Positions 16,229 through 39,518 of a DNA stretch of 64,000 bases are shown here, piece by piece. The position numbers were made by a program, and so were the translations under genes. The notes below the pieces were generated by a model, which was not told the origin of the DNA, searched no databases, and saw only the letters and a program-made list of their open reading frames with translations. The stretch spans positions 1 through 64,000 of the forward strand of contig QHYI01000138.1 in NCBI GenBank assembly GCA_003223245.1, read 5' to 3'. The first letter of the stretch is position 1, and every line of letters begins with the position of its first letter. The stretch is from Acidobacteriota bacterium. GTDB lineage: Bacteria > Acidobacteriota > Terriglobia > Acidiferrales > UBA7541.

Positions 16229-16481
16229 GATTCCTCCGTAGGCAAATTCCCCAAAATGACCGCGGCGAACACGGAATTATAGGTGCGAATTCGCTGCGCT
16301 CGCAACACACGCTAAGGGAGATTCGGGGAAACGAGGTTTCTGGGGGTTGCATGTGCCCATGGCGGCGGGCGGCAACTATCGGTCTTGTTCCGCGACCTTG
16401 TGCCCTATCCGGGGTGTCAGTAGAATATTCATTCTTTGCTTCCCGCATTTTCTCTATTGCGTCATCTCGGAGTCTGACTGC

Positions 16482-18092: not shown

Positions 18093-18093
18093 C

Positions 18094-19683
18094 ATGCCGC
18101 TCGGCCAGCGCGTGGTCCTTATTGGCGGCGGTCATAACGCACTGATCGCCGCTTTTTATTTGGCCAAGGGTGGATTTAAGCCGCTCGTCCTTGAACGCCG
18201 CGAAATAGTGGGTGGCGGCGCCATCACCGAGGAGTTTTATTCCGGCTTTCGCGTGTCCACGCTGGCGCACACCGTCGGACCCCTGCGTGCCGATATTGCT
18301 CGCGACATGCAGCTCTTCCGCTTTAGCTGTGAGATTCTTTCTCCCAATCCCCGTGTCTTTGCTCCCACGCCCGAAGGCCGAGCGCTATTTTTCTATAACG
18401 ACGCCGCCAAAACCGCCGCAGGCATTGCTGACTTTTCGCAAAAAGACGCCAAGAAATACGCGGAATTCGCGGAGTCGCTCGAATCGATTTCCGAGGTTCT
18501 TACCCAGCTTACCGCGATGACGCCGCCCGCGATCGATAAGCCCAGCCCGGAAGATTTTTGGAATCTTTTTAAGACCGGCCGCGGCGTCCGGCGGCTCGGG
18601 AAAGCGGGCATCTTCAATCTTTTCCGCTGGGCGCCCATGGCCGTTGCGGATTTTGTCGCCGAATTTTTTGAGACGGAATTGCTTCGCGCGGTGATCGCGG
18701 CGCGCGGCATTTTCGGCAATGCGCTGGGGCCCTGGTCTGCCGGATCGACTGCAGTTCTCCTTCTTCGCGCTGCCGCCGATCCGCATCCTGTTGGCTCCGC
18801 CTCTTTTCCTCGCGGCGGTCTCGGCTCGCTCACGCGCGTGCTCGCCGAATCCGCCAAAGAGGCCGGCGCAGAAATCCGCACCGACGCGGAAGTCGCGCAA
18901 ATTCGCGTCAAGGATGGAGCGGTCACCGGCGTCGTACTCAAAGATGGGGAAGAAATCGCCGTCGAAGCCGTTGTTTCTGGCGTCGATCCCAAGCGCACGT
19001 TCTTTCAGCTCATCGATCCTTCACAGCTCGATCCCGTTTTTGCCACGCGCATCAAGAATTTTCGTGCGCGGGGCAATGTCGCAAAAGTGAATCTCGCGCT
19101 CGGCGGCCTGCCCAGCTTCTCCGCGCTCGAAAGCAATGAGAATGCCATCCGGGCTCTCTCCGGCCGCATTCACATCAGTCCGGATATCGATTATTTGGAA
19201 CGCGCCTTCGACGATTCCAAGTACGGCGAGCTTTCCCGCGCGCCCTATCTTGACGTCACGATTCCAACAATTCTCGATCCGCCTCTCGCTCCGGACGGCA
19301 AGCACGTCCTTTCCGCTTACGTGCAGTTCGCTCCCTACAAACTGCGGGAAGGGAACTGGGTTTCGCGCCGGCGCGACCTTGGACTCGCGGTAATCAAAAC
19401 GCTGGGCGCCTATGCACCGAATCTCTCTGGCCTCGTGGAAGGCGTGCAGGTGATCACTCCCGAGGACCTGGAAAAGAATTACGGCTTCACCGGCGGACAT
19501 ATTTTCCACGGCGACCTCGCCCTGGACCAGCTTTTCACCATGCGGCCCGTGCTCGATTGGGCGCGCTACAAAACGCCCATCGACGGGCTCTTCCTGTGCG
19601 GCTCCGGCACGCATCCGGGAAACGGCTTGACCGGCGCCAGCGGCGCCAACGCCGCCCGCGAAATCATCCGCGAACTGCGCTGA
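18094..19683 (+). CDS. FAD-dependent oxidoreductase, phytoene desaturase/PYROXD2-like (second of tandem pair)
   Basis: A 529-residue paralogue of the preceding protein: VVLIGGGHNALIAAFYLAKGG, LVLERREIVGGGAITEE, the middle FPRGGLGSLTRVLAE segment and the C-terminal LFLCGSGTHPGNGLTGASGANA are aligned to the same positions in the partner. The genes are separated by one base (TGAcATG) and must be co-transcribed; the pair may form a heterodimer, as several two-subunit flavoenzymes do. The divergence between the two is high, so the duplication is old. It is cytoplasmic by absence of a signal. The substrate is unknown; the GcvT-like gene across the divergent promoter suggests one-carbon or N-methyl chemistry, which is inference only. 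Confidence 0.85.
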   Translation: MPLGQRVVLIGGGHNALIAAFYLAKGGFKPLVLERREIVGGGAITEEFYSGFRVSTLAHTVGPLRADIARDMQLFRFSCEILSPNPRVFAPTPEGRALFFYNDAAKTAAGIADFSQKDAKKYAEFAESLESISEVLTQLTAMTPPAIDKPSPEDFWNLFKTGRGVRRLGKAGIFNLFRWAPMAVADFVAEFFETELLRAVIAARGIFGNALGPWSAGSTAVLLLRAAADPHPVGSASFPRGGLGSLTRVLAESAKEAGAEIRTDAEVAQIRVKDGAVTGVVLKDGEEIAVEAVVSGVDPKRTFFQLIDPSQLDPVFATRIKNFRARGNVAKVNLALGGLPSFSALESNENAIRALSGRIHISPDIDYLERAFDDSKYGELSRAPYLDVTIPTILDPPLAPDGKHVLSAYVQFAPYKLREGNWVSRRRDLGLAVIKTLGAYAPNLSGLVEGVQVITPEDLEKNYGFTGGHIFHGDLALDQLFTMRPVLDWARYKTPIDGLFLCGSGTHPGNGLTGASGANAAREIIRELR

Positions 19684-24201: not shown

Positions 24202-25800
24202 TCAGGGAGCGCCTTCGTTGAGCTTGTCGAGCGACCATTCGGCAACAGGCATGGGATCGAGAATGGGTTTGCCAAGATGGGGGCAACTCAACGCGTACAG
24301 GCCGGTGTCGGCGGCGCACCAAATCACGTTGCGGTCCCATTCGACGAAAACGTTGTCGACCGTACGATCGTAGCTGCCAAAGTTTTTCAAGTCGCCTCCC
24401 TGCGGCGGAATGAAGTAAGCGACTTCTTCCGGTTTTGTGAGCTCGCCAATGTCGTAGCAGCGCAGCCCGGCGATGAAATAGGAATAAGCGATGAATTCAT
24501 GGCGGGGTTTGCCCGGCGCTTTAAGATGCGGCGGATTGTGCGCGCCGAAGCGGCCGCGCTTGAAGCAAAAATCGCGATAAGGAGCTTCGGGCGGAGGAAC
24601 GGGGCGGGGAAGCTGTGCGACGGGCACGGGATGCGCTTGGTCGCGAATGTCGATGACCCAATTCGGCAAATAGATTTGATTGCAGTCCGAGTTGGTGGTT
24701 TCGCCGTTGGAAAGGACGAAGCCGCGCTCGAGAATGCCGCAATAAATCGTGTGAAAAGCGATGCCCATGCCGGAATATTGCGGTGGCGGTTCGAAGCGGC
24801 CGATTTCTTTTTGATGCGCGGGATCGGAAAGGTCGAGAATGATGAAGCCGTTCGAGCCGAACGCGCCATAGCCGCGATTGCCGCCGTCTTCTAATTTTTT
24901 CGGAACATACACAGGGCCGTGCAGTCCCGCGAAGGGAGTCTGATCCGCAACAACTCTTGGCGGAACGAGCTTCGACCAGATCCATTGGTCGTATTCGGCT
25001 TCTTCGCCTTTGCGCGAGCCGGGAACCCACCACATAGAAATTTCTTTGGGGCTGGCGGGATCGGAGCAGTCGATAATCATGTTGCCGTTGACGAGTTCAC
25101 GGAAATAGCTTGGCTGGTGAATGAAAGTTTCATCGGGCGCGGTATCGAGATAGGCGTACCTGCCGCCGTCATAATAATTGCGGTGCGTGCCCTGGCCGGT
25201 GGCGCCGGTGCTGAATTCGGAAATTTTGACGATTTTTGCGGGATCGGTGGCGTCGTAGAAGCGAACGCCGCGGAGGCCTTTGTAATTCTTGCGTTTGTCG
25301 TCGAGGTGCGGGTCATCGTACTTGCCCATGGGCGCTTGGGGCGTGGAATCAGTAATGGGAGTTTGCGCCCCGGTCATGAGAATCCACTTTTTGAGGTTTT
25401 TGTTGTAAGCGACCTGCAGTTGATTGCCCTCGAAACCGCCTTTGTTGAACATCGTAGGTTTGCGAATGTCGCTCGCGTCGATGACGTCACCCTGCTGGAG
25501 AATGTAGCGGCGGCTGCCCACGGCCATCATTTGCATTTTGCCGCCGCGATGCTGCCCGGGAGCAAAGTGGGCGAGGAGGTCCATGTTGCGGATGTACATG
25601 CGGCGGTCGAGGTAAGTAAGGCTGTTGGGCGTGGGATGAGGATGATGGTCGGCCCAGGCCGTGAGGGAAGAGCCGGCGAGCGCGAGGCCTGCGCCGGCGG
25701 CGCTGCGAAGGAACTGGCGGCGGGTCGAGAGAGGCGAGTTGCTGGGGGGATTGCTGGGGATGTTGAGGCACCGCTGTTTGGGACCGTTGGCTCTGCGCAT
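24202..25800 (-). CDS. Tat-exported LVIVD-repeat beta-propeller protein
   Basis: A 532-residue protein beginning with a twin-arginine signal (STRRQFLRSAAGAGLALAG). The body has repeats of the form 'V.FYDATDPAKIV', 'MIIDCSDPASPKEI', 'FIILDLSDPAHQKEI' and 'WVIDIRDQAHPVPV', which are LVIVD blades of a propeller. Relatives are common in Acidobacteriota and soil proteobacteria but have no assigned activity. Tat export implies folding, perhaps with a metal cofactor, before secretion; several His-rich spots (DHHPHP, CFKRGRFGAHNPPH) could bind metal. ATG 25800 has GAGGAG upstream. It diverges from the aldehyde dehydrogenase and the shared region carries an operator-like site. Confidence 0.75.
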   Translation of the reverse strand: MRRANGPKQRCLNIPSNPPSNSPLSTRRQFLRSAAGAGLALAGSSLTAWADHHPHPTPNSLTYLDRRMYIRNMDLLAHFAPGQHRGGKMQMMAVGSRRYILQQGDVIDASDIRKPTMFNKGGFEGNQLQVAYNKNLKKWILMTGAQTPITDSTPQAPMGKYDDPHLDDKRKNYKGLRGVRFYDATDPAKIVKISEFSTGATGQGTHRNYYDGGRYAYLDTAPDETFIHQPSYFRELVNGNMIIDCSDPASPKEISMWWVPGSRKGEEAEYDQWIWSKLVPPRVVADQTPFAGLHGPVYVPKKLEDGGNRGYGAFGSNGFIILDLSDPAHQKEIGRFEPPPQYSGMGIAFHTIYCGILERGFVLSNGETTNSDCNQIYLPNWVIDIRDQAHPVPVAQLPRPVPPPEAPYRDFCFKRGRFGAHNPPHLKAPGKPRHEFIAYSYFIAGLRCYDIGELTKPEEVAYFIPPQGGDLKNFGSYDRTVDNVFVEWDRNVIWCAADTGLYALSCPHLGKPILDPMPVAEWSLDKLNEGAP

Positions 25801-26115
25801 CAATCGCGGCTCCTCTCGTTCAAGCTGGCCAAAAACAGGGCGCAGCCGTTGAAAAGGTATGACCGCTGTACCACTTGGCGGTGAACAGTGTCAAGGGATA
25901 TCCACGGATTGACGGGAAAACGCGGAAGTAGGCTGTTTTGGAGAAGGACATCAGGGTATAGTGGTTGGACCAAGTAGAGGGCTACCAGCTTTGTCGGGGA
26001 ACCGTCTCCATCTTGAAACAATCAATCGGCACCAAGTTGCCTGCGTGTATTTTTAGCGTCGGCGGTGCCTTGCCTTAGACTAGGAAAGGAACGGGATTTT
26101 GGAGGACGAAGAGAA
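25801..26115. other. Divergent promoter region between LVIVD protein and aldehyde dehydrogenase
   Basis: 315 bases without a gene. It holds a TATAGT box and the FadR-type operator described separately, plus a weak inverted repeat around 25877-25898 (CTTG...CAAG). Control of both flanking genes from here is likely. Confidence 0.5.
25957..25972 (+). promoter_or_regulatory. -10-like box overlapping a FadR-type operator
   Basis: TATAGT at 25957 shares its last base with TGGTTGGACCA, an exact fit to TNGTNNNACNA, the consensus published for FadR-subfamily GntR regulators. The same arrangement occurs at 27517-27532 in front of the regulator gene. A repressor here would block RNA polymerase. The -35 is poor. 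Confidence 0.5.
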
Positions 26116-28344: not shown

Positions 28345-29226
28345 ATGGCGAATCTGGGATTCGTGGGTTTGGGAGTGATGGGCAGCGAGATGGTAAACCG
28401 GCTGCTCGCAAAGGGCCACAGCGTAACGGGATACAACCGGACGCGTTCGAAGGCGGAATGGCTGATCAAGAAAGGCATGAAATGGGCGGATACGCCCAAG
28501 GCGGTCGTAGCAGCGAGCGACATCACGTTGTCGATGGTGACCAACTCTGCGGCACTGGCGGCGGTGATGAACGGTCCGGATGGCATGCTGGCAGGCGTCA
28601 AGCCAGGCAAGATTTTTGTGGATCTGAGCACGGTGGGGCCGGCGTTCAGCCGGGAGATTGCCGCAAAGGTGAGAGAAAAGGGCGGGGACATGGTGGACTC
28701 GCCGGTTTCTGGAAGCGTGATCACGCTGCAGGAAGGCAAGCTATCGGTGATGGTGGGCGGGCAGAAAGAAACGTTCGAGAGGGTGAAGCCGTTGCTGCTG
28801 GATATTGGGCCCAAGGTCACGCATGTAGGAGAGAACGGGCAAGCGCTGGTGATGAAGATTGGCGTGAATTTGAGCCTGGCGGTGCAAATGCTGGCGTTTT
28901 GCGAGGGAGTGCTGCTGGCAGAAAAGAGCGGCATCAAGCGGGAGACGGCCGTGGAGGTGCTGACGCACAGCGTGATCGGGTCGCCGATGGTGCAGTACCG
29001 CGGGCCGTTCGTGCTGAAAATGCCGAAAGAGGCTTGGTTCAACGTCAACATGATGCAGAAAGACATGCTGCTGGCGCTGGAGTTGGGGCGGCAACTGGAT
29101 GTGCCAATGCCGACGACGGCGGTAACGAATGAATTTTTGACGGCGGCGCGGGGAATTGGGCTGGCGGAAAAGGATTTCGCGGTAGTGTTTGAAGTTTTGG
29201 CACAAATGGCTGGAGTTTCTCAATGA
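28345..29226 (+). CDS. NAD(P)-dependent beta-hydroxyacid dehydrogenase (3-hydroxyisobutyrate dehydrogenase family)
   Basis: A 293-residue enzyme. The N-terminal Rossmann motif LGFVGLGVMGSEMVNRLLAKG binds NAD(P); an Arg in YNRTRSKAE favours NADP. Then VFVDLSTVGP-like substrate loop (FVDLSTVGPAFSREIA), DSPVSGSVITLQEGKLSVM and the catalytic lysine in NGQALVMKIGVNLSL. Members interconvert beta-hydroxyacids and semialdehydes (3-hydroxyisobutyrate, tartronate semialdehyde, succinate semialdehyde/GHB). With the neighbouring aldehyde dehydrogenase it could manage a semialdehyde intermediate. Its stop overlaps the E1 alpha start by four bases (ATGA), so translation is coupled. Confidence 0.87.
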   Translation: MANLGFVGLGVMGSEMVNRLLAKGHSVTGYNRTRSKAEWLIKKGMKWADTPKAVVAASDITLSMVTNSAALAAVMNGPDGMLAGVKPGKIFVDLSTVGPAFSREIAAKVREKGGDMVDSPVSGSVITLQEGKLSVMVGGQKETFERVKPLLLDIGPKVTHVGENGQALVMKIGVNLSLAVQMLAFCEGVLLAEKSGIKRETAVEVLTHSVIGSPMVQYRGPFVLKMPKEAWFNVNMMQKDMLLALELGRQLDVPMPTTAVTNEFLTAARGIGLAEKDFAVVFEVLAQMAGVSQ

Positions 29227-30221
29227 GCATTGCCACGGATCAAGCCAGGGTGATCGAAGGCGTCAAAGCGGAACAGTGGGTGCGCATTTACCGGCGCATG
29301 GTGATGATCCGGCAGTTTGAGGAGCAGGTGAATGAGCTCTATACGCGCGCGCTGATGCCCGGCTTGGCGCACCTGTATATGGGGGAAGAAGCGGTGGCCG
29401 TGGGGATTTGCGAAGCGCTGCGGCAGACCGACTACATCACCAGCACGCATCGCGGGCACGGGCACTGTCTGGCGAAGGGCGCTTCGCCGGACCGCATGTT
29501 TGCGGAGTTGCTGGGAAAAGAAGCAGGGTATTGCCGGGGAAAGGGCGGCTCGATGCACATTGCCGATCCGGCCACGGGAAATCTGGGCGCGAATGCGATT
29601 GTCGGAGGAAGCGCAGGAATTGCCACGGGCGCGGCGCTTTCTTCGAAGCGGCTGGGCACGGGGCAAGTGACGGTGTGCTTTTTCGGCGAAGGAGCGCTGG
29701 GGCAAGGCGTTTTGTATGAGGTGATGAATTTGGCGGCGCTATGGAAGCTGCCGGTGATCTACGTTTGCGAGAACAATCTTTACAACGAATACACGCATTA
29801 TTCGGAGACGACCGCCGGAGATATGCTGGCACGCGGCGCAGCGTTCGGTGTGCACGCGGAAAGCGTGGATGGGCAAGACGTCCGCGTGGTTTACGCGACG
29901 GCCGAGCGTCTGGTGGAACGCGCGCGCAGGGGAGAAGGACCGGCGTTGCTGGTTTGCAACACGTACCGCTACCACGGGCACCACGTCGGCGACATCAACC
30001 GCGAGTATTACCGGTCGAAGCAAGAAGAGCAGGAGTGGAAGACGAAGCGCGACCCGATCAAGAATTTCGCGGAGTGGATGATCCAGCAGAAAATTTCAGA
30101 TGCGGCGGCACTCGAACAGATGCAGAAGGAAGTACGAGCGGAGATGAAAGCGGCTGTGGAGTTCGCGATTGCTGCGCCGTATCCCAAACCGGAAGAAGCG
30201 GAGCAGGACGTGTATGCCTGA
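29223..30221 (+). CDS. Thiamine-diphosphate-dependent 2-oxoacid dehydrogenase, E1 alpha subunit
   Basis: A 332-residue protein of the PdhA/AcoA family. RMVMIRQFEEQVNELY is the usual first helix, followed by GLAHLYMGEEAVAVGI, STHRGHGHCLAKGA, GKGGSMHIAD, and the ThDP-binding motif that begins FFGEGALGQGVLYEVMN (GDG replaced by GEG) and ends in CENNLYNEYTHY. YRYHGHHVGD is the phosphorylation-loop region. It decarboxylates a 2-oxoacid (or acetoin) and passes the acyl group to lipoyl-E2. The GEG in place of GDG is seen in some acetoin-type enzymes. It overlaps both the upstream dehydrogenase and the downstream E1 beta gene. Confidence 0.88.
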   Translation: MSIATDQARVIEGVKAEQWVRIYRRMVMIRQFEEQVNELYTRALMPGLAHLYMGEEAVAVGICEALRQTDYITSTHRGHGHCLAKGASPDRMFAELLGKEAGYCRGKGGSMHIADPATGNLGANAIVGGSAGIATGAALSSKRLGTGQVTVCFFGEGALGQGVLYEVMNLAALWKLPVIYVCENNLYNEYTHYSETTAGDMLARGAAFGVHAESVDGQDVRVVYATAERLVERARRGEGPALLVCNTYRYHGHHVGDINREYYRSKQEEQEWKTKRDPIKNFAEWMIQQKISDAAALEQMQKEVRAEMKAAVEFAIAAPYPKPEEAEQDVYA

Positions 30222-31209
30222 AATGGCGGTGCGCGAATTAACGTTTGCGCACGCCGTGCGGGAGGCGCTGGCGGAAGAAATGCGGCGCGACTCGCGTGTG
30301 TGCATTTTCGGCGAGGACGTGGCGGAAGCGGGGACGCCGTTCAAAGTTTTGTCGGGATTAGTGGAAGAGTTCGGCCGGGAACGCGTGCTGGATACGCCGA
30401 TTTCGGAGGCAGGATTCACCGGGATGGGCGTGGGCGCAGCGATGACCGGGCTGCGGCCGGTGGTGGACATCATGTTTGGCGACTTCCTGACGCTGACGAT
30501 GGATCAACTGGTGAACCAGGCCGCGAAAGTGCATTACATGTCCGGCGGAACGTGGAAAGTGCCGATGGTGCTGCGAACGACGTTGGGAGCGACGCGGCGT
30601 TCGGCGGCGCAGCACTCGCAATCGCTGCATGCATGGCTGAGCCATGTGCCGGGATTGAAAGTGGCGATGCCGTCGACGCCGTACGACGCAAAGGGGCTGC
30701 TGAAGACGGCGATCCGCGACGACAATCCCGTGGTCTTTTTCGAGGACAAGATGATGTACAAGCTAAAGGGTCCGGTGCCGGAGCAGGAGTACACCATTCC
30801 GTTCGGCGTGGCGGACATGAAACGCGAGGGGGAAGACATCACGATTGTGGCGACGAGCAGCATGGTGCAGGTGGCGTTGGGGGCAGCGGAATGCTTGGAG
30901 AAAATCGGCGTGAGCGCCGAAGTGATTGATCCGCGGACGACATGGCCGCTCGATGAGAAGACACTGGTGGAATCGGCGAAGAAGACTTCGCGCGCGATCG
31001 TGGTGGACGAGGGCTACGGTCGGTACGGCGTGACGGGAGAGATTGCTTCGGTGATTGCGGAAGGTGCGTTCTACAGCCTGGATGCGCCGGTAAAGCGGAT
31101 GGGCGCGATGCACGTGCCGATTCCGTTTTCGCCGCCGTTGGAAGATGTGACGGTGCCGACCGAACAAACGGTTTTTGAGGCGGCGCGGGCGATGTGTGGG
31201 AAAGGCTGA
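30214..31209 (+). CDS. Thiamine-diphosphate-dependent 2-oxoacid dehydrogenase, E1 beta subunit
   Basis: A 331-residue transketolase-like partner of the preceding protein: FAHAVREALAEEMRRDSRV, CIFGEDVAEAGTPFKV, DTPISEAGFTGMGVGAAMTG, RPVVDIMFGDFLTLTMDQLVNQ, GATRRSAAQHSQSLHAW (active-site His) and a C-terminal VVDEGYGRYGVTGEI. It completes the alpha2beta2 E1 active site. I start at ATG 30214, which overlaps the E1 alpha stop by 8 bases and has GGAG upstream; ATG 30223 (MAVRELTF) is possible. The tight overlap shows stoichiometric coupled expression with E1 alpha. Confidence 0.88.
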   Translation: MPEMAVRELTFAHAVREALAEEMRRDSRVCIFGEDVAEAGTPFKVLSGLVEEFGRERVLDTPISEAGFTGMGVGAAMTGLRPVVDIMFGDFLTLTMDQLVNQAAKVHYMSGGTWKVPMVLRTTLGATRRSAAQHSQSLHAWLSHVPGLKVAMPSTPYDAKGLLKTAIRDDNPVVFFEDKMMYKLKGPVPEQEYTIPFGVADMKREGEDITIVATSSMVQVALGAAECLEKIGVSAEVIDPRTTWPLDEKTLVESAKKTSRAIVVDEGYGRYGVTGEIASVIAEGAFYSLDAPVKRMGAMHVPIPFSPPLEDVTVPTEQTVFEAARAMCGKG

Positions 31210-31233: not shown

Positions 31234-32580
31234 ATGGCGCTGAAAACGTATGGACCGATGGCGGTGGATTGGGAGAACCGCGTAGATTTTGACCGGCTGC
31301 GGCGCGAGCGGTTGGCGCGCGCGAAGGCCCTGCTGGCGAAATCGGAGATGGGCGCGCTGCTGTGCTTCGACATGAACAACGTGCGGTATATCACCGCGAC
31401 GCACATCGGTACGTGGGCGCAAGACAAAATCAGCCGGTTCACGCTGCTGCCGCAAAAGGATGAGCCAATTTTGTGGGATTTCGGAAGCGCGGCGCGGCAT
31501 CACCAGCAGAATTGTCCTTGGCTAGGCGAAAGGTCGCGCGCGGGCATTCCGCTGCTGCGCGGGGCGATGTCTCCGGAAATGGGCCGCGCGGAAAATGTGG
31601 CGCGAAAGATCAAAGTGGAGCTGGAAAAGCGCGGTCTGCACAAGGAACCGCTGGGAATCGACGTGGTCGAGCCGCCGATTCTTTTTGCCCTGCAGAAAGA
31701 AGGCATCAAAGTTGTCGACGGGCAGCAGTTGATGAGCGACGCGCGAGTGATTAAGACGCAAGACGAGATTTCGCTGCTGAATCATTCGGCAATGATGGTG
31801 GACGCGGCGTATGACGAGTTGTACCGCGCGATGAAACCAGGGATGAGCGAGAACCAGGCTGTAGGTCTCGTGAGCAAAGTGTTGTACGACCTGGGCTCGG
31901 AGTTTGTCGAAGCCGTGAACGCGATTTCCGGCGAGCGGTGCAGCCCGCATCCGCATGTGTTTTCCGATCGCGTGCTGCGGCCGGGCGATCCGGTGTACTA
32001 CGACATTTTGCATTCGTATATGGGATACCGCACGTGCTACTACCGGTGCTTCACGATTGGATATGCGTCGCATGCGATGCGCGATGCGTACAAGCGCTGC
32101 CGGGAATACCTGGATGCGGCCATCGAGCTCGTGCGGCCAGGAAGAACGACGGCGGAGATCGCTTCGGTGTGGCCGAAGGCGGAAGAGTTTGGATTTTCGG
32201 ACGAGGAGGCAGCCTTTGCGCTGCAATTCGGGCACGGCATCGGGCTGGCGATTTGGGAGAAGCCGGTCATCAGCCGGTTGGTTTCGCTGGAGCATTCGCA
32301 CGAGATCAAGCCGGGAATGGTCTTTGCGCTCGAAACTTTCTGGCCGTCGAGCGACGGATGGAGCGCGGCGCGCATTGAAGAAGAAATCGTAGTGACCGCA
32401 ACCGGTCACGAAGTGATCACGCGCTTTCCCGCGGAAGAATTGATGGTGGCGGGAGCGCACTACTTCACGGTGGACGGGCCGCTTTCGACGACGCGCGAGA
32501 ACGAGGCGCCGCCGAGCCGGCGAGTGAAAGAAATGGTGGAGGCTAGCGCGAAAGCGGAAGGAGTGGCGGCCACGGACTGA
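31234..32580 (+). CDS. M24 (pita-bread fold) hydrolase with an altered metal site
   Basis: A 448-residue creatinase/prolidase-fold protein. The C-terminal half shows the M24 landmarks: FALQFGHGIGLAIWEKP (His), MVFALETFWPSS (Glu) and ARIEEEIVVT (Glu). The first metal Asp is in VYYDILHSYMGYRTCYYRCF, but the second, expected in a Y.SD..R motif, is replaced by Cys (YRTCYYR). So one of five dinuclear-metal ligands is changed; this may be a non-peptidase such as a creatinase- or ectoine-hydrolase-like amidohydrolase. It lies between E1 beta (24 bases) and E2 and has a perfect AGGAGGTG ribosome site, so it is part of the catabolic operon rather than a housekeeping dipeptidase. Confidence 0.8.
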   Translation: MALKTYGPMAVDWENRVDFDRLRRERLARAKALLAKSEMGALLCFDMNNVRYITATHIGTWAQDKISRFTLLPQKDEPILWDFGSAARHHQQNCPWLGERSRAGIPLLRGAMSPEMGRAENVARKIKVELEKRGLHKEPLGIDVVEPPILFALQKEGIKVVDGQQLMSDARVIKTQDEISLLNHSAMMVDAAYDELYRAMKPGMSENQAVGLVSKVLYDLGSEFVEAVNAISGERCSPHPHVFSDRVLRPGDPVYYDILHSYMGYRTCYYRCFTIGYASHAMRDAYKRCREYLDAAIELVRPGRTTAEIASVWPKAEEFGFSDEEAAFALQFGHGIGLAIWEKPVISRLVSLEHSHEIKPGMVFALETFWPSSDGWSAARIEEEIVVTATGHEVITRFPAEELMVAGAHYFTVDGPLSTTRENEAPPSRRVKEMVEASAKAEGVAATD

Positions 32581-32709: not shown

Positions 32710-33918
32710 ATGGCGATCAGCGTGGTGATGCCGGCGCTCGAAATGGCGCAGGAAACCGGGAAGCTGCTGGCGTGGCGAAAAAAAGAAGGTGAGAGTGTGC
32801 GCAAAGGCGAGCCGCTGCTCGAGATTGAAACTGACAAGGCCGTGGTGGAAGTGGAAGCGCCGGGAGACGGGTTGCTAGCGGGAGTCAGTGCGGAGGTGGG
32901 CGCAGTGATCCCGGTGGGCGAAACGATCGCGTGGCTGGTCGCGCCGGGAGAGAAGCCGCCGGCGAAGGCACGAACGGCAGTGTCCGCTCGGCGCGCCATG
33001 GGCGGAGCCGCACAAACTGCCGTTGGTGCGCAAGCTACAGTTGCTGCGAAGACGGCAGTTGCCCGTATAGCGCCGCAAATTTCGCCGAAAGCGCGTCGGC
33101 GGGCGAAAGAATTGCGCATAGATATTGCGCTCGTACCTGGCACGGGACCCGATGGTGTGATTACCGCAGAAGACGTGCAGAAGTTTGCGGATGCCAAAGC
33201 GGGCGCAGGTGCTGTCGCGGCGCAGGCAACGGCTTCCGGGGTTGAGCCGCCGAGCCCAGTCGCTCGACTCATGGCCGAACGCACGACGCAAAGCTGGACA
33301 AACGTACCGCACTTTTTTCTAGTTCGAGAAGCGGATGCGGGCGAACTGATTGCGGCACAGCGGCGCTTGGGCGAAGAGGCAAAAAAGTCACAGAAATCAG
33401 CACCAACGATTACGGATTTGCTCATTGCTCTCCTTGCGCGAGCGCTGGCGAGACATCCGCGTATGAATGCCAGCTGGGCGGGGGAAAGCATCCGTTCGAA
33501 TACGGAAGTCAATATTAGCGTGGCGATCGCAGTGAAAGATGGAGTGGTCAGCGCTGTCATTCCTAAGGCGGACACGCTGAAGATTGCGGAGATTTCCGCA
33601 CTGCGGCGGGAATTGACAGAGCGGGCGCGAGCGGGAAGGCTGCGCCCGGCGGACATTACCGGCGGCACTTTCACGCTGAGCAATCTTGGAATGTACCAGG
33701 TGGATGCGTTCAGCGCGATCATCACGCCGCCGCAAGCAGCGGTCCTCGCCGTGGGAGCAATTTCCGAACGGGTGGTAGCGGTGGAAGGCCGGCCCGTTGT
33801 GCGGCCGATGATGACGATGACCCTGTCGAGCGATCACCGCGTGGTGGACGGCGCGCGGGCGGCAGAGTTTTTAAACGATTTGGCGGAGGCTGTTCGCGAA
33901 CCAATGAAGTTGCCTTAG
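32710..33918 (+). CDS. Dihydrolipoamide acyltransferase, E2 component of a 2-oxoacid dehydrogenase
   Basis: A 402-residue E2. Residues 1-80 are one lipoyl domain with the lipoylated Lys43 in EIETDKAVVEVEAP. After an Ala-rich linker, ISPKARRRAKELRID and GTGPDGVITAEDVQKF form the peripheral-subunit-binding domain (about 120-160). The catalytic acyltransferase domain follows (from NVPHFFLVREADAG) with the active-site motif SSDHRVVDGARAAEFL and GGTFTLSNLGMYQVDAFSAII. It accepts the acyl group from E1 and gives it to CoA. No E3 lipoamide dehydrogenase is in the window, so the complex must borrow one. A 129-base gap separates it from the M24 gene. Confidence 0.9.
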   Translation: MAISVVMPALEMAQETGKLLAWRKKEGESVRKGEPLLEIETDKAVVEVEAPGDGLLAGVSAEVGAVIPVGETIAWLVAPGEKPPAKARTAVSARRAMGGAAQTAVGAQATVAAKTAVARIAPQISPKARRRAKELRIDIALVPGTGPDGVITAEDVQKFADAKAGAGAVAAQATASGVEPPSPVARLMAERTTQSWTNVPHFFLVREADAGELIAAQRRLGEEAKKSQKSAPTITDLLIALLARALARHPRMNASWAGESIRSNTEVNISVAIAVKDGVVSAVIPKADTLKIAEISALRRELTERARAGRLRPADITGGTFTLSNLGMYQVDAFSAIITPPQAAVLAVGAISERVVAVEGRPVVRPMMTMTLSSDHRVVDGARAAEFLNDLAEAVREPMKLP

Positions 33919-34026: not shown

Positions 34027-35697
34027 ATGAGCATAGTCAGTCGGCGTGAATTCGTGAAAACCACGGCACTGGCGCCCCTGGCGGCAGCTCCGTTTTCGTT
34101 AAGCGGGCAAACCTCCAAGGATGATCGCTTTGACATTGTGGTGGCGGGCGCTGGGCACAACAGCATGGTCACCGCCGCGTATCTGGCGAAGGCAGGCTAT
34201 CGCTGCCTGCTGCTCGAAGGGCGGCCGATCGTCGGGGGTGGCGTGAAGACCGCGCAATTAACGCTGCGCGGATTCCAAGACGACGTTTGTTCTACGTCGC
34301 ACGCGTTTTTGATGGACAACCCGATGATCAAGAACAACGAGCTCCCGCTGCGGGACTACGGGCTCGAGTACATCGATCCCGATCCGATTTTTCATGTTCC
34401 GTTTGCGGACGGCACTTACCTGACGCAGTGGCGCGACGTGGATCGCACCTGTGAGGAGTTCGGGAAATTCTCAAAGAAAGATGCGGCGGCTTATCGCAAA
34501 ATGCTGGCGGAATTCGACGCCATCAGGCCGATTGTATTTGCAGCAAGCTTTACACCCATTGGCTTCGGCAAACCGGTGAACGACCAGCTGGGGCAATTGC
34601 CGCGCGGTAAATTGTGGCAGCGCCGAATGGCTATGTCCGCGTGGGAAGTCATTCGCGATACGTTTGAGGACGAGCATTCCCGGACGTTCCTCTTATTCAT
34701 GGCGCACCTGGCAGCCGAGCCGCCGGATGGGCCGGTGACGGGAAGATTGGCGTACGGCGCGGCGCGCCAGCAGCATTCGGGGCGCCCCATCCCGAAAGGC
34801 GGATCGGGGATGCTCACTCAAGCACTGGCGCGCTACATCGAAGCGCACAACGGCGTGCTGCTCACCAGCAAATGGGTGAAACGATTGATCGTGGAGAACG
34901 GCCGCTGCGTAGGCGTGGAATGCAGCGATGGGAGCTCCTATCGTGCGGAAAAGGCGGTGGTCTCAACGATCCACATCAAACACCTGGTGGACATGGCGCC
35001 GCGAGAATTGTGGGGCCAGGACTTCCTCGACGGCGTGGACACTTGGCAGGCGGAAAACCCCATGTTTGTGACGCACTACGCGATGAGCGAGCCGCCAAAG
35101 TTTGCCGTGCAAGGAGGCGCTCTCGCGCCGATCGAGGCGGGCATTCTGGCTTCGCCGGAGCGGGCGCTGCGATTTGGGTATGACGACCAACGAGGTGTGG
35201 TGAATTTGGAAGATCCTCCGATGCAAATTATTACCTGCACGGTGGCGGACCCGTCGCGCGCGCCACTAGGAATGCACACCGTCAAAGTGGTCGGGTGGCA
35301 GCCGTACGAACTCAAGGAAGGACCGCAGCACTGGGACAAAATCAAGAACGCAGTCTCGGACAGCTATTTGAAACATTTGCAACGGTATGCCCCGAATTTA
35401 ACTGACGATAAGATTCTCGCGCGGTTCATCGAGAGCCCGCTCGATTTGGAGCGCATGAATCCCCATTTTTGGCATGGCAGCGCGCACGCGGGCGCGCAAT
35501 GTGCGTCGCAAGTTGGACCTATGCGGCCGATGCCCGGCTGGGCGCAGCATCGCATGCCGATTCCCGGCTTATATCAGACCGGAGCCACGACGCATCCTGG
35601 CGGATCGGTGACCGGAGGGCCGGGGCGGAACGCGGCAACGGTTATTCTTAAGGATTTCGGGACCAGCATCGAGGAAGTTGCGAGCAAGAAGGCGTAG
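34027..35697 (+). CDS. Tat-exported FAD-dependent oxidoreductase, phytoene desaturase/PYROXD2-like
   Basis: A 556-residue third member of the same flavoprotein family as the 16.5-19.7 kb pair, but with a twin-arginine signal at the N-terminus (SRREFVKTTALAPLAAAPF). The FAD motif is FDIVVAGAGHNSMVTAAYLAKAG, then CLLLEGRPIVGGGVKTAQ and the closing LYQTGATTHPGGSVTGGPGRNA. Tat export of an FAD enzyme means it folds with cofactor first and works in the periplasm. It starts at ATG 34027 after a perfect TAGGAGGT. Next downstream are a five-heme cytochrome c and a Tat-exported Mo hydroxylase, so electrons from the flavin could be passed to periplasmic cytochrome. The substrate is unknown. Confidence 0.84.
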   Translation: MSIVSRREFVKTTALAPLAAAPFSLSGQTSKDDRFDIVVAGAGHNSMVTAAYLAKAGYRCLLLEGRPIVGGGVKTAQLTLRGFQDDVCSTSHAFLMDNPMIKNNELPLRDYGLEYIDPDPIFHVPFADGTYLTQWRDVDRTCEEFGKFSKKDAAAYRKMLAEFDAIRPIVFAASFTPIGFGKPVNDQLGQLPRGKLWQRRMAMSAWEVIRDTFEDEHSRTFLLFMAHLAAEPPDGPVTGRLAYGAARQQHSGRPIPKGGSGMLTQALARYIEAHNGVLLTSKWVKRLIVENGRCVGVECSDGSSYRAEKAVVSTIHIKHLVDMAPRELWGQDFLDGVDTWQAENPMFVTHYAMSEPPKFAVQGGALAPIEAGILASPERALRFGYDDQRGVVNLEDPPMQIITCTVADPSRAPLGMHTVKVVGWQPYELKEGPQHWDKIKNAVSDSYLKHLQRYAPNLTDDKILARFIESPLDLERMNPHFWHGSAHAGAQCASQVGPMRPMPGWAQHRMPIPGLYQTGATTHPGGSVTGGPGRNAATVILKDFGTSIEEVASKKA

Positions 35698-35725
35698 CCG
35701 CTGAAAAAAGAGAGGAGACGCGGAA

Positions 35726-36298
35726 ATGAAGATGACGAGACCGGTTTCCTTGGGGTTTGTTGGGCTGGCGGTTACTGCAGCGCTTCTCTTTTTTGAAAGA
35801 AGTTTGACGGCTCGACAAAGCCCAGCATCGTCGGCCACGGCAACAAAGAGCATGGTGCCGGACAATCCGAGCGAACATCCTGCGCCTCCGCAGCCGATCC
35901 CCTATAGCCATAAGAAGCATTTGGCGCTCGGATTGGAGTGCAAGACCTGTCATACGAATCCCGAGCCCGGCAAGCTCATGACGTTTCCCGATACCGGCAA
36001 ATGCATGCAATGTCATGTCACAGTTGCAAAGGAGAAACCAACGATTCAGAAACTGGCCAGCTACGCGAAATCGAAGCAAGCGGTTCCCTGGGTGCGCGTT
36101 TATACCGTCTTGCCGGGAGTAACATGGAGTCATAGACCGCATCTTCAGGCCGGTGTCGATTGCGAGACTTGCCACGGGCAAGTGCGCGACATGGAACAAA
36201 TGTCCGAAGTCACCAGCGTGACCACCATGTACGTCTGCTTGAACTGCCACGACACGAATCACGCGAAAACCGCTTGTGACACTTGCCACAAATCTTGA
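35726..36298 (+). CDS. Periplasmic five-heme c-type cytochrome
   Basis: A 190-residue protein with an N-terminal membrane/signal segment (VSLGFVGLAVTAALLFF) and five CxxCH heme sites at Cys 72 (CKTCH), 93 (CMQCH), 146 (CETCH), 171 (CLNCH) and 184 (CDTCH). Extra His residues, as in YSHKKH and WSHRPH, can be the distal ligands, giving bis-His hemes in the class III/c7 style. It should carry electrons in the periplasm. It lies 28 bases after the Tat-exported flavoprotein and 32 bases before the Mo hydroxylase small subunit, so it is the natural acceptor for one or both. A GAGGAG ribosome site precedes the ATG. Confidence 0.88.
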   Translation: MKMTRPVSLGFVGLAVTAALLFFERSLTARQSPASSATATKSMVPDNPSEHPAPPQPIPYSHKKHLALGLECKTCHTNPEPGKLMTFPDTGKCMQCHVTVAKEKPTIQKLASYAKSKQAVPWVRVYTVLPGVTWSHRPHLQAGVDCETCHGQVRDMEQMSEVTSVTTMYVCLNCHDTNHAKTACDTCHKS

Positions 36299-36330
36299 TC
36301 GGGCGGAAAATTTGTTGCCGGGGAGGGCTC

Positions 36331-36804
36331 ATGGCGATGCAAATTGAAGTCAACGGAAAACGCTGCGCTGTCAGCTACCCTCCGGACACGCCACTTTTGT
36401 ATGTGCTGCGCGACGAACTTGGCCTCACGGGCACCAAATATGGCTGCGGAGAAGGGCAGTGCGGCGCATGCACGGTGTTGCTGGCAGGAGCGCCAAGGCG
36501 TTCTTGCCAGATTCCTGTGAGTGCTGCGGCGGCGAAACCCATCACGACCATTGAAGGTTTGGAGAAGGAAGGCAAGCTGCATCCGGTGCAGCAGGCATTT
36601 CTCGACGCAGGCGCGTTTCAGTGCGCCTATTGCACTTCGGGAATGGTGATGAGCAGCGTGGTTTTGCTGCAGACCAATGCCAATCCAAAACGTGAAGAGA
36701 TCGTGCAATTCCTTCAAGGCAATGTCTGCCGGTGCGGGACGCATCCGCGCATCATCGAGGCCGTGCAGCACGCCGCAAAGATGATGCAGGAGCGTGCGCG
36801 GTGA
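36331..36804 (+). CDS. (2Fe-2S) small subunit of a molybdenum hydroxylase
   Basis: A 157-residue iron-sulfur protein of the IorA/CoxS family. The plant-ferredoxin-like cluster is in YGCGEGQCGACTVLL with a fourth Cys in RRSCQIPV; the second cluster is in FQCAYCTSGMVMS and NVCRCGTHPRI. These two clusters relay electrons from the molybdopterin site in the partner subunit. There is no export signal, as usual; it is carried out with the Tat-tagged large subunit. ATG 36331 follows GGGGAGGG. Its stop overlaps the next start (GTGA), showing coupled translation. Confidence 0.9.
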   Translation: MAMQIEVNGKRCAVSYPPDTPLLYVLRDELGLTGTKYGCGEGQCGACTVLLAGAPRRSCQIPVSAAAAKPITTIEGLEKEGKLHPVQQAFLDAGAFQCAYCTSGMVMSSVVLLQTNANPKREEIVQFLQGNVCRCGTHPRIIEAVQHAAKMMQERAR

Positions 36805-38957
36805 ACACCCTAAGAGAGAGACTTGTTGCCGAACCAGAGCGCTTCGAATTTGGCGCTGTGCCGATGCATCAATTCGACTTGGCGCGCCGCGAGTTCTTCA
36901 AGATTCTGGGCGCAGGGATTGCCGTGTTTGCTGTGGCCAAGGATGCGCTCGCGCAAGAGACCGCTCCCGGCTCGCCGTCGTTTCATAGCGAGGAGTCGCC
37001 GAAGGAAATCACTTCGTGGCTGCACATTGGCGAAGACGGAATGGTTACCGGGTTCACCGGCAAGGCCGAAATGGGACAGAATATTCGAACGTCCATCTCG
37101 CAGACGCTAGCGGATGAGCTGCGCGTACCCTTTGAAAGCGTTCGCCTGGTGATGGGAGATACGGCTCTGACGCCCTTCGATGCAGGCACCTTTGGTAGCC
37201 GCACCACGCCAACGATGACGCCGCAATTTCGCCGTGTGGCGGAGGCAGCGCGCAACTTGCTCATCGGCGTCGCGGCGAAAGAATGGAATGTTCCGCCAGA
37301 GGGACTCGTTGCCGCGGACGCCAAGGTGACGCATCCAGCTTCGAAGCGTTCGCTGACCTACGCCGAGCTCGCGCGCGGCAAAACCCTCGCGCAGAACCTG
37401 CCCGCAGAAGATCCCATCACTCCCGCAACGGAATGGAAGATTGCGGGGAAGCCACTTCCTAAAGTGGATGGCCGCGCGTTTGTAACCGGCAATCACAAAT
37501 ACACTAGCGACATCCGGCTCGAGGGAATGCTTTACGGGAAAGTGCTACGCCCGCCGTCGTTTGGCGCGACGCTGGTTTCCTACGACGACAGCGCAGCAAA
37601 AGTGATGAGCGGCGTGACGGTCGTGCGCGACGCGGATTTTATTGGCGTAGCGGCACCAAGCGCGCACGAGGCTCATAAAGCGCTTGACGCTATTCGCACA
37701 CAATGGAAAGAAGTGCCTCAGGTATCGAGCAAGGAGATTTTCTCGTATCTCAAGAAGAACGCAGAACCCTCTTCGAACGAGCGATTTCGCCACCAGAAGG
37801 GTTCGCTAGAGGAAGGACTCGCTGCCGCGACGCATGGCCTGGAGGTAACCTACAACGTGGCGTATATCGCGCACTCTCCGCTCGAGCCCCGCGCGGCTGT
37901 GGCACAATTTGCCGATGGCCAGTTGACGGTATGGACCGGAACGCAGCGACCGTTCGCGAATCGCGACGAACTCGCCAGCGTTTTTCACATGCCGGAAAGC
38001 AAAGTGCGCGTCATTGTTCCCGACACGGGCGCGGCGTATGGCGGGAAACATACGAGCGACGCGGCCCTCGAAGCCGCGCGCTTGGCCCGCGCTGCGGGAA
38101 AGCCCGTAAAAGTTGTCTGGACCCGGGAGGAGGAGTTTACCTGGGCATATTTCCGTCCTGCGGGTGTAATCGAAGTCAAAAGCGGCATCGCTTCAGACGG
38201 CAAACTCACGGCCTGGGAATTTCACAACTACCATTCCGGCATGTCGGCGATCGAAACACCCTACGACGTAGCTAATCAACTGACACAATACCATCAGGTA
38301 CCACTCGTTTTGCGCAGCGGTTCCTATCGCGGCTTGGCCGCCACGGCAAACCATTTCGCGCGCGAAACGCACATGGACGCACTGGCGCACGCGGCGAAAA
38401 TGGATCCCCTCGAATTTCGCTTGAAAAACCTTTCCAACGCGCGGATACGGGCCGTGCTGGAAGCTGCAACAAGATCGTTCGGCTGGCCGCGGAAGAAAAC
38501 GCAGGACGGGCAAGGGTTCGGCCTTGCTTGCGGCACGGAGAAAGGAAGCTGCGTCGCGGCGTGCGCCGAAGTCGCGGTCGACCTTGCTTCCGGCGGCGTG
38601 CGCGTCGTCCGCGTCGTCGAAGCCTTCGAATGCGGCGCAATCGTCAACCCCGATGGCTTGCGCAATCAGGTGGTGGGTGCAATCATCCAAGGATTGGGCG
38701 GAGCGCTCTTCGAAGCCGTCGAATTCGAAAATGGACGAATCACGAATCCGCACTTTGCCACATACCGCGTGCCGCGCTTCCGAGATGTGCCGGAGATCGA
38801 AGCGGTTCTCCTCGACCGGAAGGATCTTCCCTCAGCGGGCGCGGGCGAGACGCCTATCATGGCGATTGCTCCGGCCGTCGGCAACGCGTTGTTCGATGCC
38901 ACTGGCATCCGCCTGAATGATTTGCCTCTGGTTCCGAGTGGCCTAGGTAAGGGCTGA
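36801..38957 (+). CDS. Molybdopterin-binding large subunit of an isoquinoline-oxidoreductase-type hydroxylase
   Basis: A 718-residue protein of the IorB/aldehyde-oxidoreductase family. A Tat signal (LARREFFKILGAGIAVFA) occurs near residue 30. Molybdopterin-binding segments include GKAEMGQNIRTSISQTLADEL, TFGSRTTPTM, VPDTGAAYGGKHTSD, RSGSYRGLAATANHFARE, and the catalytic Glu in SAGAGETPIMAIAPAVGNA. Such enzymes hydroxylate aromatic N-heterocycles or oxidise aldehydes with water as oxygen donor. No FAD-binding middle subunit is present, as in IorAB, which pass electrons to a cytochrome; the five-heme cytochrome is two genes upstream. Starts at GTG 36801, overlapping the small-subunit stop. Somewhat shorter than some relatives (about 740) but no motif is lost. 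Confidence 0.87.
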   Translation: MNTLRERLVAEPERFEFGAVPMHQFDLARREFFKILGAGIAVFAVAKDALAQETAPGSPSFHSEESPKEITSWLHIGEDGMVTGFTGKAEMGQNIRTSISQTLADELRVPFESVRLVMGDTALTPFDAGTFGSRTTPTMTPQFRRVAEAARNLLIGVAAKEWNVPPEGLVAADAKVTHPASKRSLTYAELARGKTLAQNLPAEDPITPATEWKIAGKPLPKVDGRAFVTGNHKYTSDIRLEGMLYGKVLRPPSFGATLVSYDDSAAKVMSGVTVVRDADFIGVAAPSAHEAHKALDAIRTQWKEVPQVSSKEIFSYLKKNAEPSSNERFRHQKGSLEEGLAAATHGLEVTYNVAYIAHSPLEPRAAVAQFADGQLTVWTGTQRPFANRDELASVFHMPESKVRVIVPDTGAAYGGKHTSDAALEAARLARAAGKPVKVVWTREEEFTWAYFRPAGVIEVKSGIASDGKLTAWEFHNYHSGMSAIETPYDVANQLTQYHQVPLVLRSGSYRGLAATANHFARETHMDALAHAAKMDPLEFRLKNLSNARIRAVLEAATRSFGWPRKKTQDGQGFGLACGTEKGSCVAACAEVAVDLASGGVRVVRVVEAFECGAIVNPDGLRNQVVGAIIQGLGGALFEAVEFENGRITNPHFATYRVPRFRDVPEIEAVLLDRKDLPSAGAGETPIMAIAPAVGNALFDATGIRLNDLPLVPSGLGKG

Positions 38958-38999: not shown

Positions 39000-39518
39000 A
39001 TGAAGCATTTCGCTTCGGCCGTGGGAGTTTTTGTAGCGTTTATCGCTATCGGTGCATGCAAAAAGCAAGCGAATGACAACGACGCGATCCGCGCCGGCAT
39101 TCTGCAACATTTGACCTCCGTCGGCACGCTGAACATGAGCGCGATGGACATGGATATCCGGAGCGTCTCCGTCAACGGCAACCAGGCGCACGCGGAAGTT
39201 GAGTTTCGTCCCAGAAACAGCGGCACGCCCGGCGCCGGAATGCATGTGGGGTACAACCTTGAAAAACGCGACGGCGCTTGGGTGGTGCTGAAATCGCAAT
39301 CGCTGGGAGGCATGATTCAGCACCCGGATCCCGGCCAAAATCCGCACGCGAATCCCGACGTGCATTCCGGGACCATGCCGAACTTCAACCAAATCTTGAA
39401 TCCCTCTGGCACGCCAGCGCAGGGCACCCTCCCTCCGGGACACCCCCCGGTGACCTCGCAGCAGCCGAGTTCTCAGACCGGCGCCAAGGAACAAACTTCC
39501 ACCGAAAAACCTCGGTAG
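39000..39518 (+). CDS. Small exported lipoprotein with a proline-rich tail
   Basis: A 172-residue protein whose signal peptide ends in a lipobox (FIAIGAC, Cys 20), so it is probably lipidated and anchored to the membrane. Residues 28-105 form a compact domain (AIRAGILQHLTSVGTLNMSAMDMDI..., HAEVEFRPRN, WVVLKSQSLGG); the last 60 residues are rich in Pro, His, Asn and Gln and look disordered. No known function. It lies 42 bases after the Mo hydroxylase and has an AAAGGA ribosome site, so it may be the last gene of that transcript. Confidence 0.65.
   Translation: MKHFASAVGVFVAFIAIGACKKQANDNDAIRAGILQHLTSVGTLNMSAMDMDIRSVSVNGNQAHAEVEFRPRNSGTPGAGMHVGYNLEKRDGAWVVLKSQSLGGMIQHPDPGQNPHANPDVHSGTMPNFNQILNPSGTPAQGTLPPGHPPVTSQQPSSQTGAKEQTSTEKPR

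What the first reader, a model, noticed from the sequence alone, without database searches (positions are those of the whole stretch)
34027..38957. Periplasmic redox module: Tat flavoprotein, pentaheme cytochrome and FAD-less Mo hydroxylase
The flavoprotein and the Mo large subunit both carry twin-arginine signals, the cytochrome has five CxxCH sites, and the Mo enzyme lacks the FAD subunit, like IorAB enzymes that use cytochromes. The genes are 28, 32 and -4 bases apart. The layout suggests that two different periplasmic oxidations feed one multiheme carrier. A Tat-exported PYROXD2/phytoene-desaturase-like enzyme is itself unusual.
Basis: partly seen in the sequence, partly recalled or inferred. 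Interest (0 to 1): 0.62.

Follow-up and report, generated by a model that had tools for sequence, protein, structure and literature searches.

The report
Periplasmic dehydrogenases sharing a five-heme cytochrome
A soil acidobacterium carries an exported flavin enzyme encoded next to a five-heme cytochrome related to a respiratory-complex subunit, and next to an exported molybdenum enzyme, which suggests a plug-in way of feeding electrons from reactions outside the inner membrane into respiration.

Summary
The flavoprotein (FP) is a CrtO/phytoene-desaturase-fold enzyme with a Tat motif; the cytochrome (CYT) has five CxxCH; the molybdenum enzyme is an FAD-less, IorAB-type hydroxylase with a Tat motif. 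FP–CYT is the core: of 96 distinct FP genes (from capped searches), 34 of 44 Tat-type ones have a pentaheme frame directly downstream against 1 of 46 without Tat, though Tat is nearly a single-clade trait (3 changes). FP and adjacent CYT co-vary, also among paralogues of one genome. CYT is kin to ActA (ACIII) and QrcA, and groups with pentahemes encoded beside GMC, PQQ and SpdH-type dehydrogenases, one fused to a PQQ dehydrogenase. The Mo enzyme is a looser member (MoS and MoL in 16 of 34 FP–CYT loci); FAD-less large subunits of separate branches sit near FP–CYT, some without a small-subunit gene. The genome's three FAD subunits each lie beside another large subunit. Closest precedent: NicA2/CycN/Pnao. 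Most likely a periplasmic dehydrogenase unit; substrate unknown. New variant of a known kind.

The parts
34027..35697 (+). FP: Tat-type CrtO/PYROXD2-like FAD protein, 556 aa
   Evidence: PF01593 49 bits; CrtO NF045689 281 bits, below its cut-off of 1000; model pLDDT 88; closest solved fold 4rep, Z 35.6
34027..34122 (+). Tat signal region of FP (residues 1-32)
   Evidence: Alignment A1; N-terminus shared by Tat-type relatives; model pLDDT under 50 for residues 1-32
35726..36298 (+). CYT: pentaheme cytochrome of the ActA/QrcA kind, 190 aa, Sec-like N-terminus and no lipobox (by eye), no other strongly hydrophobic segment
   Evidence: QrcA NF041781 70.9 bits, cut-off 180; 8k9e, 6f0k, 6lod, 6btm; 6btm named ACIII subunit A; tree
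36331..36804 (+). MoS: small subunit with Fer2 and Fer2_2 domains, 157 aa
36801..38957 (+). MoL: large Mo-binding subunit, Tat motif ARREFFK, part of MoCoBD_2 placed N-terminally, GAGE motif, 718 aa
   Evidence: (best 8gy3_C, E 1e-70)
39000..39518 (+). Small protein with a lipobox-like N-terminus (IGAC, by eye), 42 bases after MoL; matched in two of the fetched genus loci
   Evidence: (L031, L034, 70-71%); no Pfam family
28345..29226 (+). HIBADH/tartronate-semialdehyde-reductase family gene, first of the co-directional run
29223..30221 (+). 2-oxoacid dehydrogenase E1 alpha
30214..31209 (+). 2-oxoacid dehydrogenase E1 beta (named from position and reading of the sequence; not scanned against a family library)
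31234..32580 (+). M24 family hydrolase, 91-98% identical in the genus loci that have it
32710..33918 (+). 2-oxoacid dehydrogenase E2

Best explanation
FP is a periplasmic FAD dehydrogenase: it folds in the cytoplasm, is exported by Tat, oxidises a small organic substrate, and instead of using O2 or NAD(P) passes the electrons to the pentaheme CYT, which is exported by Sec and matured in the periplasm. The FAD-less Mo hydroxylase encoded after it is also exported; having no FAD subunit or cytochrome of its own, it reduces the same CYT, most likely oxidising the aldehyde or ring product of the same pathway. CYT, a probably soluble relative of ActA and QrcA, hands the electrons to the respiratory chain (the genome has an ACIII with its own ActA). 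The oxidised product is taken up and used by the cytoplasmic part of the operon (HIBADH-type reductase, 2-oxoacid dehydrogenase E1/E2, M24 hydrolase). Shown: genes, signal motifs, cofactor motifs, conserved adjacency, co-variation, neighbours of the sister cytochromes. Inferred: electron transfer, substrate class, exit route, uptake.
For: FP–CYT adjacency: 34 of 44 Tat FPs against 1 of 46 non-Tat FPs, down to 45-47% FP identity and in a gammaproteobacterium (L175) and a rhodobacteraceous MAG (L171). FP and CYT distances correlate over 35 pairs (r 0.74, maximum of 2000 shuffles 0.48), and the true pairing ranks 1 of 48 when paralogues of one genome are swapped. CYT falls with pentahemes beside GMC, PQQ and SpdH-type dehydrogenases, one fused to a PQQ dehydrogenase (L050), apart from the ACIII and Qrc/CISM pentahemes. 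Precedent: in the flavin amine-oxidase superfamily, Tat plus an adjacent cytochrome c gene predicted cytochrome c-using dehydrogenases, and NicA2 and Pnao share CycN (PMC12224317, passages). Mo enzyme: CYT-MoS-MoL contiguous in 11 of 19 genus loci, MoS-MoL-FP-CYT in L175 with a MoL from another branch; P. simiae deoxyribose dehydrogenase is IorAB-like + cytochrome c with a possible Tat signal (PMC6365646, passages).
Against: No biochemical data. The Tat label needs only 3 changes on the FP tree and the independent-pairs sign test has no power (median p 0.5), so the Tat/CYT association is largely one ancestral state kept by descent. Ten Tat FPs have no CYT directly downstream; five of these (L121 x2, L122 x2, L143) have none in the fetched locus. 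Both Mo genes occur in only 16 of 34 FP–CYT loci, so a shared carrier is unproven. The CYT model without heme is poor (pLDDT 62). The substrate is unknown.
Confidence: 0.62

Rival explanations
1. FP–CYT is the real unit; the Mo enzyme is a pathway neighbour that uses a different acceptor (another cytochrome c, quinone or a copper protein).
For: Of 34 Tat-FP–CYT loci 18 lack a MoS hit and 15 lack both MoS and MoL hits in the fetched DNA, some of it short; L038 keeps the rest of the operon but has no Mo gene in the 9.4 kb after CYT. In L042, L044 and L048/L116 the nearby MoL-like gene has no MoS beside it.
Against: Contiguity in 11 of 19 genus loci and in L175 with a different gene order; FAD-less MoLs of separate branches sit near FP–CYT, while FAD-less paralogues of the window's genome lie on other contigs.
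Confidence: 0.25
2. FP is a periplasmic O2-using oxidase and CYT serves only the Mo enzyme or another process.
For: In PMC12224317 most tested Tat flavoproteins without a cytochrome gene nearby were fast oxidases (passages); Tat FPs without CYT exist here (L143, L121, L122).
Against: CYT is found with FP far more regularly than with Mo genes; pairs co-vary.
Confidence: 0.08
3. Reverse flow: CYT delivers electrons to FP, which is a reductase or isomerase (CrtISO/RetSat-like) working in the periplasm.
For: The closest solved fold is a carotenoid desaturase; the superfamily holds isomerases and saturases (recalled).
Against: The sister pentahemes sit beside dehydrogenases (GMC, PQQ, SpdH-type); the operon looks catabolic.
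Confidence: 0.05

Closest known systems
NicA2 / CycN / Pnao of Pseudomonas putida S16 and the related Tat flavoprotein + cytochrome c dehydrogenases (PMC12224317, passages read)
   Same: Tat-exported flavoprotein of the amine-oxidase fold superfamily, adjacent Sec-exported cytochrome c, one cytochrome shared by two oxidation steps
   Different: The FP here is of the CrtO/PYROXD2 branch, the carrier has five hemes and is of ActA/QrcA kin, and the second enzyme is a Mo hydroxylase
Mo aldehyde dehydrogenase of PDB 8gy3 (from acetic acid bacteria, recalled)
   Same: Its large subunit is the best PDB match of MoL
   Different: As I recall (not looked up) its cytochrome subunit is a triheme class I type; no such gene here
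IorAB-like deoxyribose dehydrogenase of P. simiae (PMC6365646, passages read)
   Same: IorAB-type subunits, possible Tat signal, cytochrome c gene in the operon, proposed periplasmic oxidation
   Different: Cytochrome with a membrane anchor; I did not compare its sequence; no flavoprotein mentioned
ActA of alternative complex III and QrcA of Qrc
   Same: Sequence family of CYT
   Different: Here without the FeS and NrfD membrane partners; on another side of the tree
Gluconate dehydrogenase-type GMC + subunit 3 + cytochrome
   Same: Flavoprotein dehydrogenase with a multiheme partner; acidobacterial versions lie beside a sister pentaheme
   Different: GMC enzyme with a separate Tat-type subunit; FP here carries its own signal

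Membership tests
Cytochrome c-using flavoprotein dehydrogenase (NicA2-like arrangement) | Tat signal on the flavoprotein | tested here: met
   SRREFVK, kept in Tat-type relatives; motif only, no SignalP available
Cytochrome c-using flavoprotein dehydrogenase (NicA2-like arrangement) | Adjacent cytochrome c gene with a Sec-type signal | tested here: met
   CYT 28 bases downstream; hydrophobic N-terminal segment; cleavage not tested
Cytochrome c-using flavoprotein dehydrogenase (NicA2-like arrangement) | Reduces its cytochrome much faster than O2 | not testable with these tools
   Needs stopped-flow kinetics
CrtO beta-carotene ketolase (NF045689) | Score over the curated cut-off of 1000 bits | tested here: not met
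   281 bits: a relative, not a member
FAD-less IorAB-type Mo hydroxylase | Separate [2Fe-2S] small subunit and Mo large subunit, no FAD subunit | tested here: met
FAD-less IorAB-type Mo hydroxylase | Hydroxylase or aldehyde oxidase activity | not testable with these tools
   Glu motif GAGE present
ACIII (ActA subunit) | Genes for ActB and ActC beside the pentaheme | tested here: not met
   None among the genes around CYT; the genome's ActA, ActB and ActC lie on contig C119
Qrc (QrcA, NF041781) | Score over the cut-off of 180 bits, six hemes, QrcBCD partners | tested here: not met
   70.9 bits, five hemes, no partner genes nearby (six hemes from PMC8076601)

The most novel reading that the evidence does not exclude
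In Acidobacteriota a branch of the ActA/QrcA pentaheme family has left its membrane complexes and become a general plug-in electron acceptor for unrelated periplasmic dehydrogenases (CrtO-like flavoproteins, GMC, PQQ, spermidine-dehydrogenase-like, FAD-less Mo hydroxylases). In the operon studied a whole oxidation branch moved from the cytoplasm (FP without Tat, Mo enzyme with FAD subunit, as in Thermoflexus) to the periplasm (Tat FP, FAD-less Mo enzyme, shared pentaheme). The non-Tat FP paralogues encoded just upstream in several relatives may be carried out with the Tat FP as hitchhikers.
Probability: 0.35. Interest if true: 0.68.

Novelty: new variant of a known kind. Interest (0 to 1): 0.52.

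Why it matters
Soil acidobacteria are abundant and poorly understood. If a relative of a respiratory-complex cytochrome has become a common acceptor for many periplasmic oxidations, unassigned acidobacterial dehydrogenases can be recognised by this partner and assayed with it. It would also extend the rule 'Tat flavoprotein + adjacent cytochrome = dehydrogenase' to the CrtO/PYROXD2 branch, which annotation models name after carotenoid enzymes.

Tried and rejected
CrtO/carotenoid function: rejected as an annotation (281 of 1000 bits). ACIII or Qrc membership of CYT: rejected. Statistical proof of the Tat/CYT link by independent events: failed, 3 changes, median p 0.5; the Fisher value 1e-14 ignores kinship and is not used as proof. 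Heme-free AlphaFold model of CYT: too poor to use. Substrate: M24, HIBADH and ALDH resemblances point in several directions (DMSP lyase, ectoine hydrolase, tartronate semialdehyde, succinate semialdehyde), all below equivalog cut-offs; I commit to none. A DctA-like carrier lies in the fetched locus of 11 of 34 Tat-FP–CYT genes, but the window has none. Papers: the listings of searches showed no title or abstract start describing an ActA/QrcA-like pentaheme as partner of these dehydrogenases or a Tat CrtO-like FP with a cytochrome; only listings were seen, plus passages of three papers (PMC6365646, PMC12224317, PMC8076601), so this is weak evidence of absence.

Rows dropped or changed: one search kept the best 80 of 139 relatives (76 loci), so the 96 FPs are a capped sample that leans to close relatives. 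L150 was flagged Tat by the script and reclassed by eye (an RR just before its start). Five FPs without enough downstream DNA and one N-truncated FP are outside the 2x2 table. In the cytochrome tree identical rows were merged; L060 (labelled ACIII) gave no row under the script's filters. Of the 23 places, 16 were fetched with flanks (five were not; the window and L102 were already held); L213 gave no usable cytochrome gene. GMC labels rest on Pfam for L204 and L208 and on reading N-termini for the other six; Gluconate_2-dh3 on Pfam for L208 and L206; Qrc/CISM and ACIII labels on Pfam for L053, L065, L215 and L066 and on reading for the rest. The FAD-subunit search used two of the genome's three FAD subunits; the third could not be read cleanly.
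Full report
What is there. The window is G000:C56:1-64000 of a 6.3 Mb genome. The nearest named relatives of the locus are group 2 acidobacterial soil MAGs (L103, FP 92% identical). A co-directional run starts at 28345: HIBADH-type gene, 2-oxoacid dehydrogenase E1 alpha and beta, M24 hydrolase, E2, FP, CYT, MoS, MoL and a small gene with a lipobox-like start.

The flavoprotein. FP matches PF01593 and, below cut-off, the CrtO and CrtI families. Its model is good (pLDDT 88); the closest solved structure is 4rep (Z 35.6, 475 residues, rmsd 2.7), followed at a distance by other CrtI-type proteins and by amine oxidases, NicA2 among them. The N-terminal Tat motif is outside the folded part. At E 1e-90 or better, relatives were found in 16 of 36 genomes of the genus and in 3 of 396 genomes drawn evenly from the phylum, the window's own included. 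A scan of named genomes kept the best 80 of 139 relatives, 76 loci, in Acidobacteriota, Pseudomonadota, Chloroflexota and Actinomycetota.

FP–CYT is the core. Among 96 distinct FP genes (44% or more identical to the window's, a capped sample), 34 of 44 Tat-type ones have a frame with at least four CxxCH within 1.8 kb downstream; of 46 non-Tat ones 1 has, L114:7676. Of the ten Tat exceptions, five (L115, L117 x2, L114, L119) have the cytochrome elsewhere in the fetched locus, which holds another FP copy; L121 x2, L122 x2 and L143 have none. The tree warns against over-reading this: Tat needs only three changes, so it marks one mainly acidobacterial clade, with L171 (Rhodobacteraceae) and L175 (Gammaproteobacteria) nested inside and non-Tat paralogues in the genus. 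What supports a functional pair is retention of adjacency over deep divergence and across phyla, and co-variation: distance correlation 0.74 over 35 pairs (maximum of 2000 shuffles 0.48), the true pairing being the best of 48 within-genome swaps.

The cytochrome is the surprise. CYT resembles ActA of ACIII in the PDB (that 8k9e, 6f0k and 6lod are ACIII is recalled, 6btm is so named) and QrcA among NCBIfam models. Neighbours of its homologues were read. On a quick tree of 68 pentahemes the 4 ACIII and 11 Qrc/CISM rows plus one unassigned row lie on one side, and the dehydrogenase-linked ones (FP 36, GMC 8, PQQ 4, SpdH-type 1) plus three unassigned on the other (SH-aLRT 92); the 36 FP-linked ones are one side of a branch (95). 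Pfam confirms GMC oxidoreductase (L204, L208), Gluconate_2-dh3 (L208, L206), PQQ dehydrogenases (L055, L057, L212) and one open frame in L050 in which a PQQ propeller is followed by the pentaheme. The L049 partner matches spermidine dehydrogenase SpdH at 3e-137. The genome's own ACIII cytochrome lies on C119.

The molybdenum enzyme. MoL is closest in the PDB to the large subunit 8gy3_C. It has no FAD partner: the three PF00941 genes of the genome lie beside other large subunits, and none was found in the window or genus loci. In the genus, MoS and MoL follow CYT directly in 11 of 19 loci, in one of them cut by a contig end; all 11 MoLs have RR-x-F. Over all 34 Tat-FP–CYT loci both genes are in the fetched locus in 16, and a MoL-like gene in 19. 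On the MoL tree large subunits found near FP–CYT come from separate branches of the side without FAD subunits: the window type; L042/L044 and L119; L048/L116; L175. Paralogues of the window's genome on other contigs lie among them. L119 and L175 have a MoS beside MoL; L042, L044 and L048/L116 have none in the locus, so they are weaker cases; in L048/L116 and L119 the Mo genes are not in one direction with CYT, and in L045 and L047 they lie about 8 kb away. The second-branch MoLs also start with a twin arginine before a hydrophobic stretch. Mo large subunits in loci without CYT (L121, L146, L148, L153, L160) fall on the side of the FAD-subunit enzymes; a PF00941-like gene was seen in L121 and L148 (and L149, a near copy), not in L146, L153 or L160. 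L128, which has CYT, has a PF00941-like hit at its far end. These numbers are small and the tree is a quick one with long branches.

How it most likely works. FP oxidises its substrate in the periplasm and reduces CYT; the Mo enzyme oxidises a further or related substrate and reduces CYT too; CYT passes electrons on to respiration; the product enters the cell for the E1/E2, HIBADH-type and M24 steps. The published nearest case is NicA2 and Pnao, two Tat flavoproteins with one cytochrome gene, cycN, between theirs, and the wider finding that Tat plus an adjacent cytochrome gene marks dehydrogenases in that superfamily (PMC12224317, passages). For the Mo part it is the P. simiae deoxyribose dehydrogenase (PMC6365646, passages). 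The exit from CYT to respiration, the substrate and the uptake step are inference.

Verdict. Observation confirmed; interpretation partly supported; a new variant of a known kind, made interesting by the ActA/QrcA-type carrier and its range of partners.

Noticed in passing
L050:3608-5443 (-): One open frame carries a PQQ dehydrogenase propeller followed by an ActA/QrcA-like pentaheme domain.
   Followed up: partly
L204, L206-L210, L214, L217: Acidobacterial GMC oxidoreductases beside an ActA/QrcA-like pentaheme, in most with a small Tat-type gene; that gene is Gluconate_2-dh3 by Pfam in L206 and L208, by eye in others. A gluconate-dehydrogenase-like set with another cytochrome.
   Followed up: partly
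window 15029-19683: Two more CrtO-like flavoproteins without a Tat motif at their start (16482-18092, 18094-19683) beside a GcvT-type protein that scores 286 bits with a TMAO demethylase model (cut-off 1100).
   Followed up: no
window 24202-25803 (-): Tat-motif protein with no full Pfam domain (weak LVIVD), conserved near FP–CYT in L043, L045, L047 with an NMT1-type binding protein and a FrsA-like hydrolase.
   Followed up: no
L220 (G000:C143:120000-136000): Another FAD-less Mo large subunit with Tat motif lies near genes that read like Rieske, cytochrome b and multiheme cytochromes (by eye).
   Followed up: no
L035-L041 and others: A DctA-like carrier sits between E2 and the FP genes in these genus loci, together with non-Tat FP copies; the window lacks both.
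   Followed up: partly
L121, L122, L143: Tat FPs with no cytochrome gene in the fetched locus; by the published rule these could be periplasmic oxidases.
   Followed up: no
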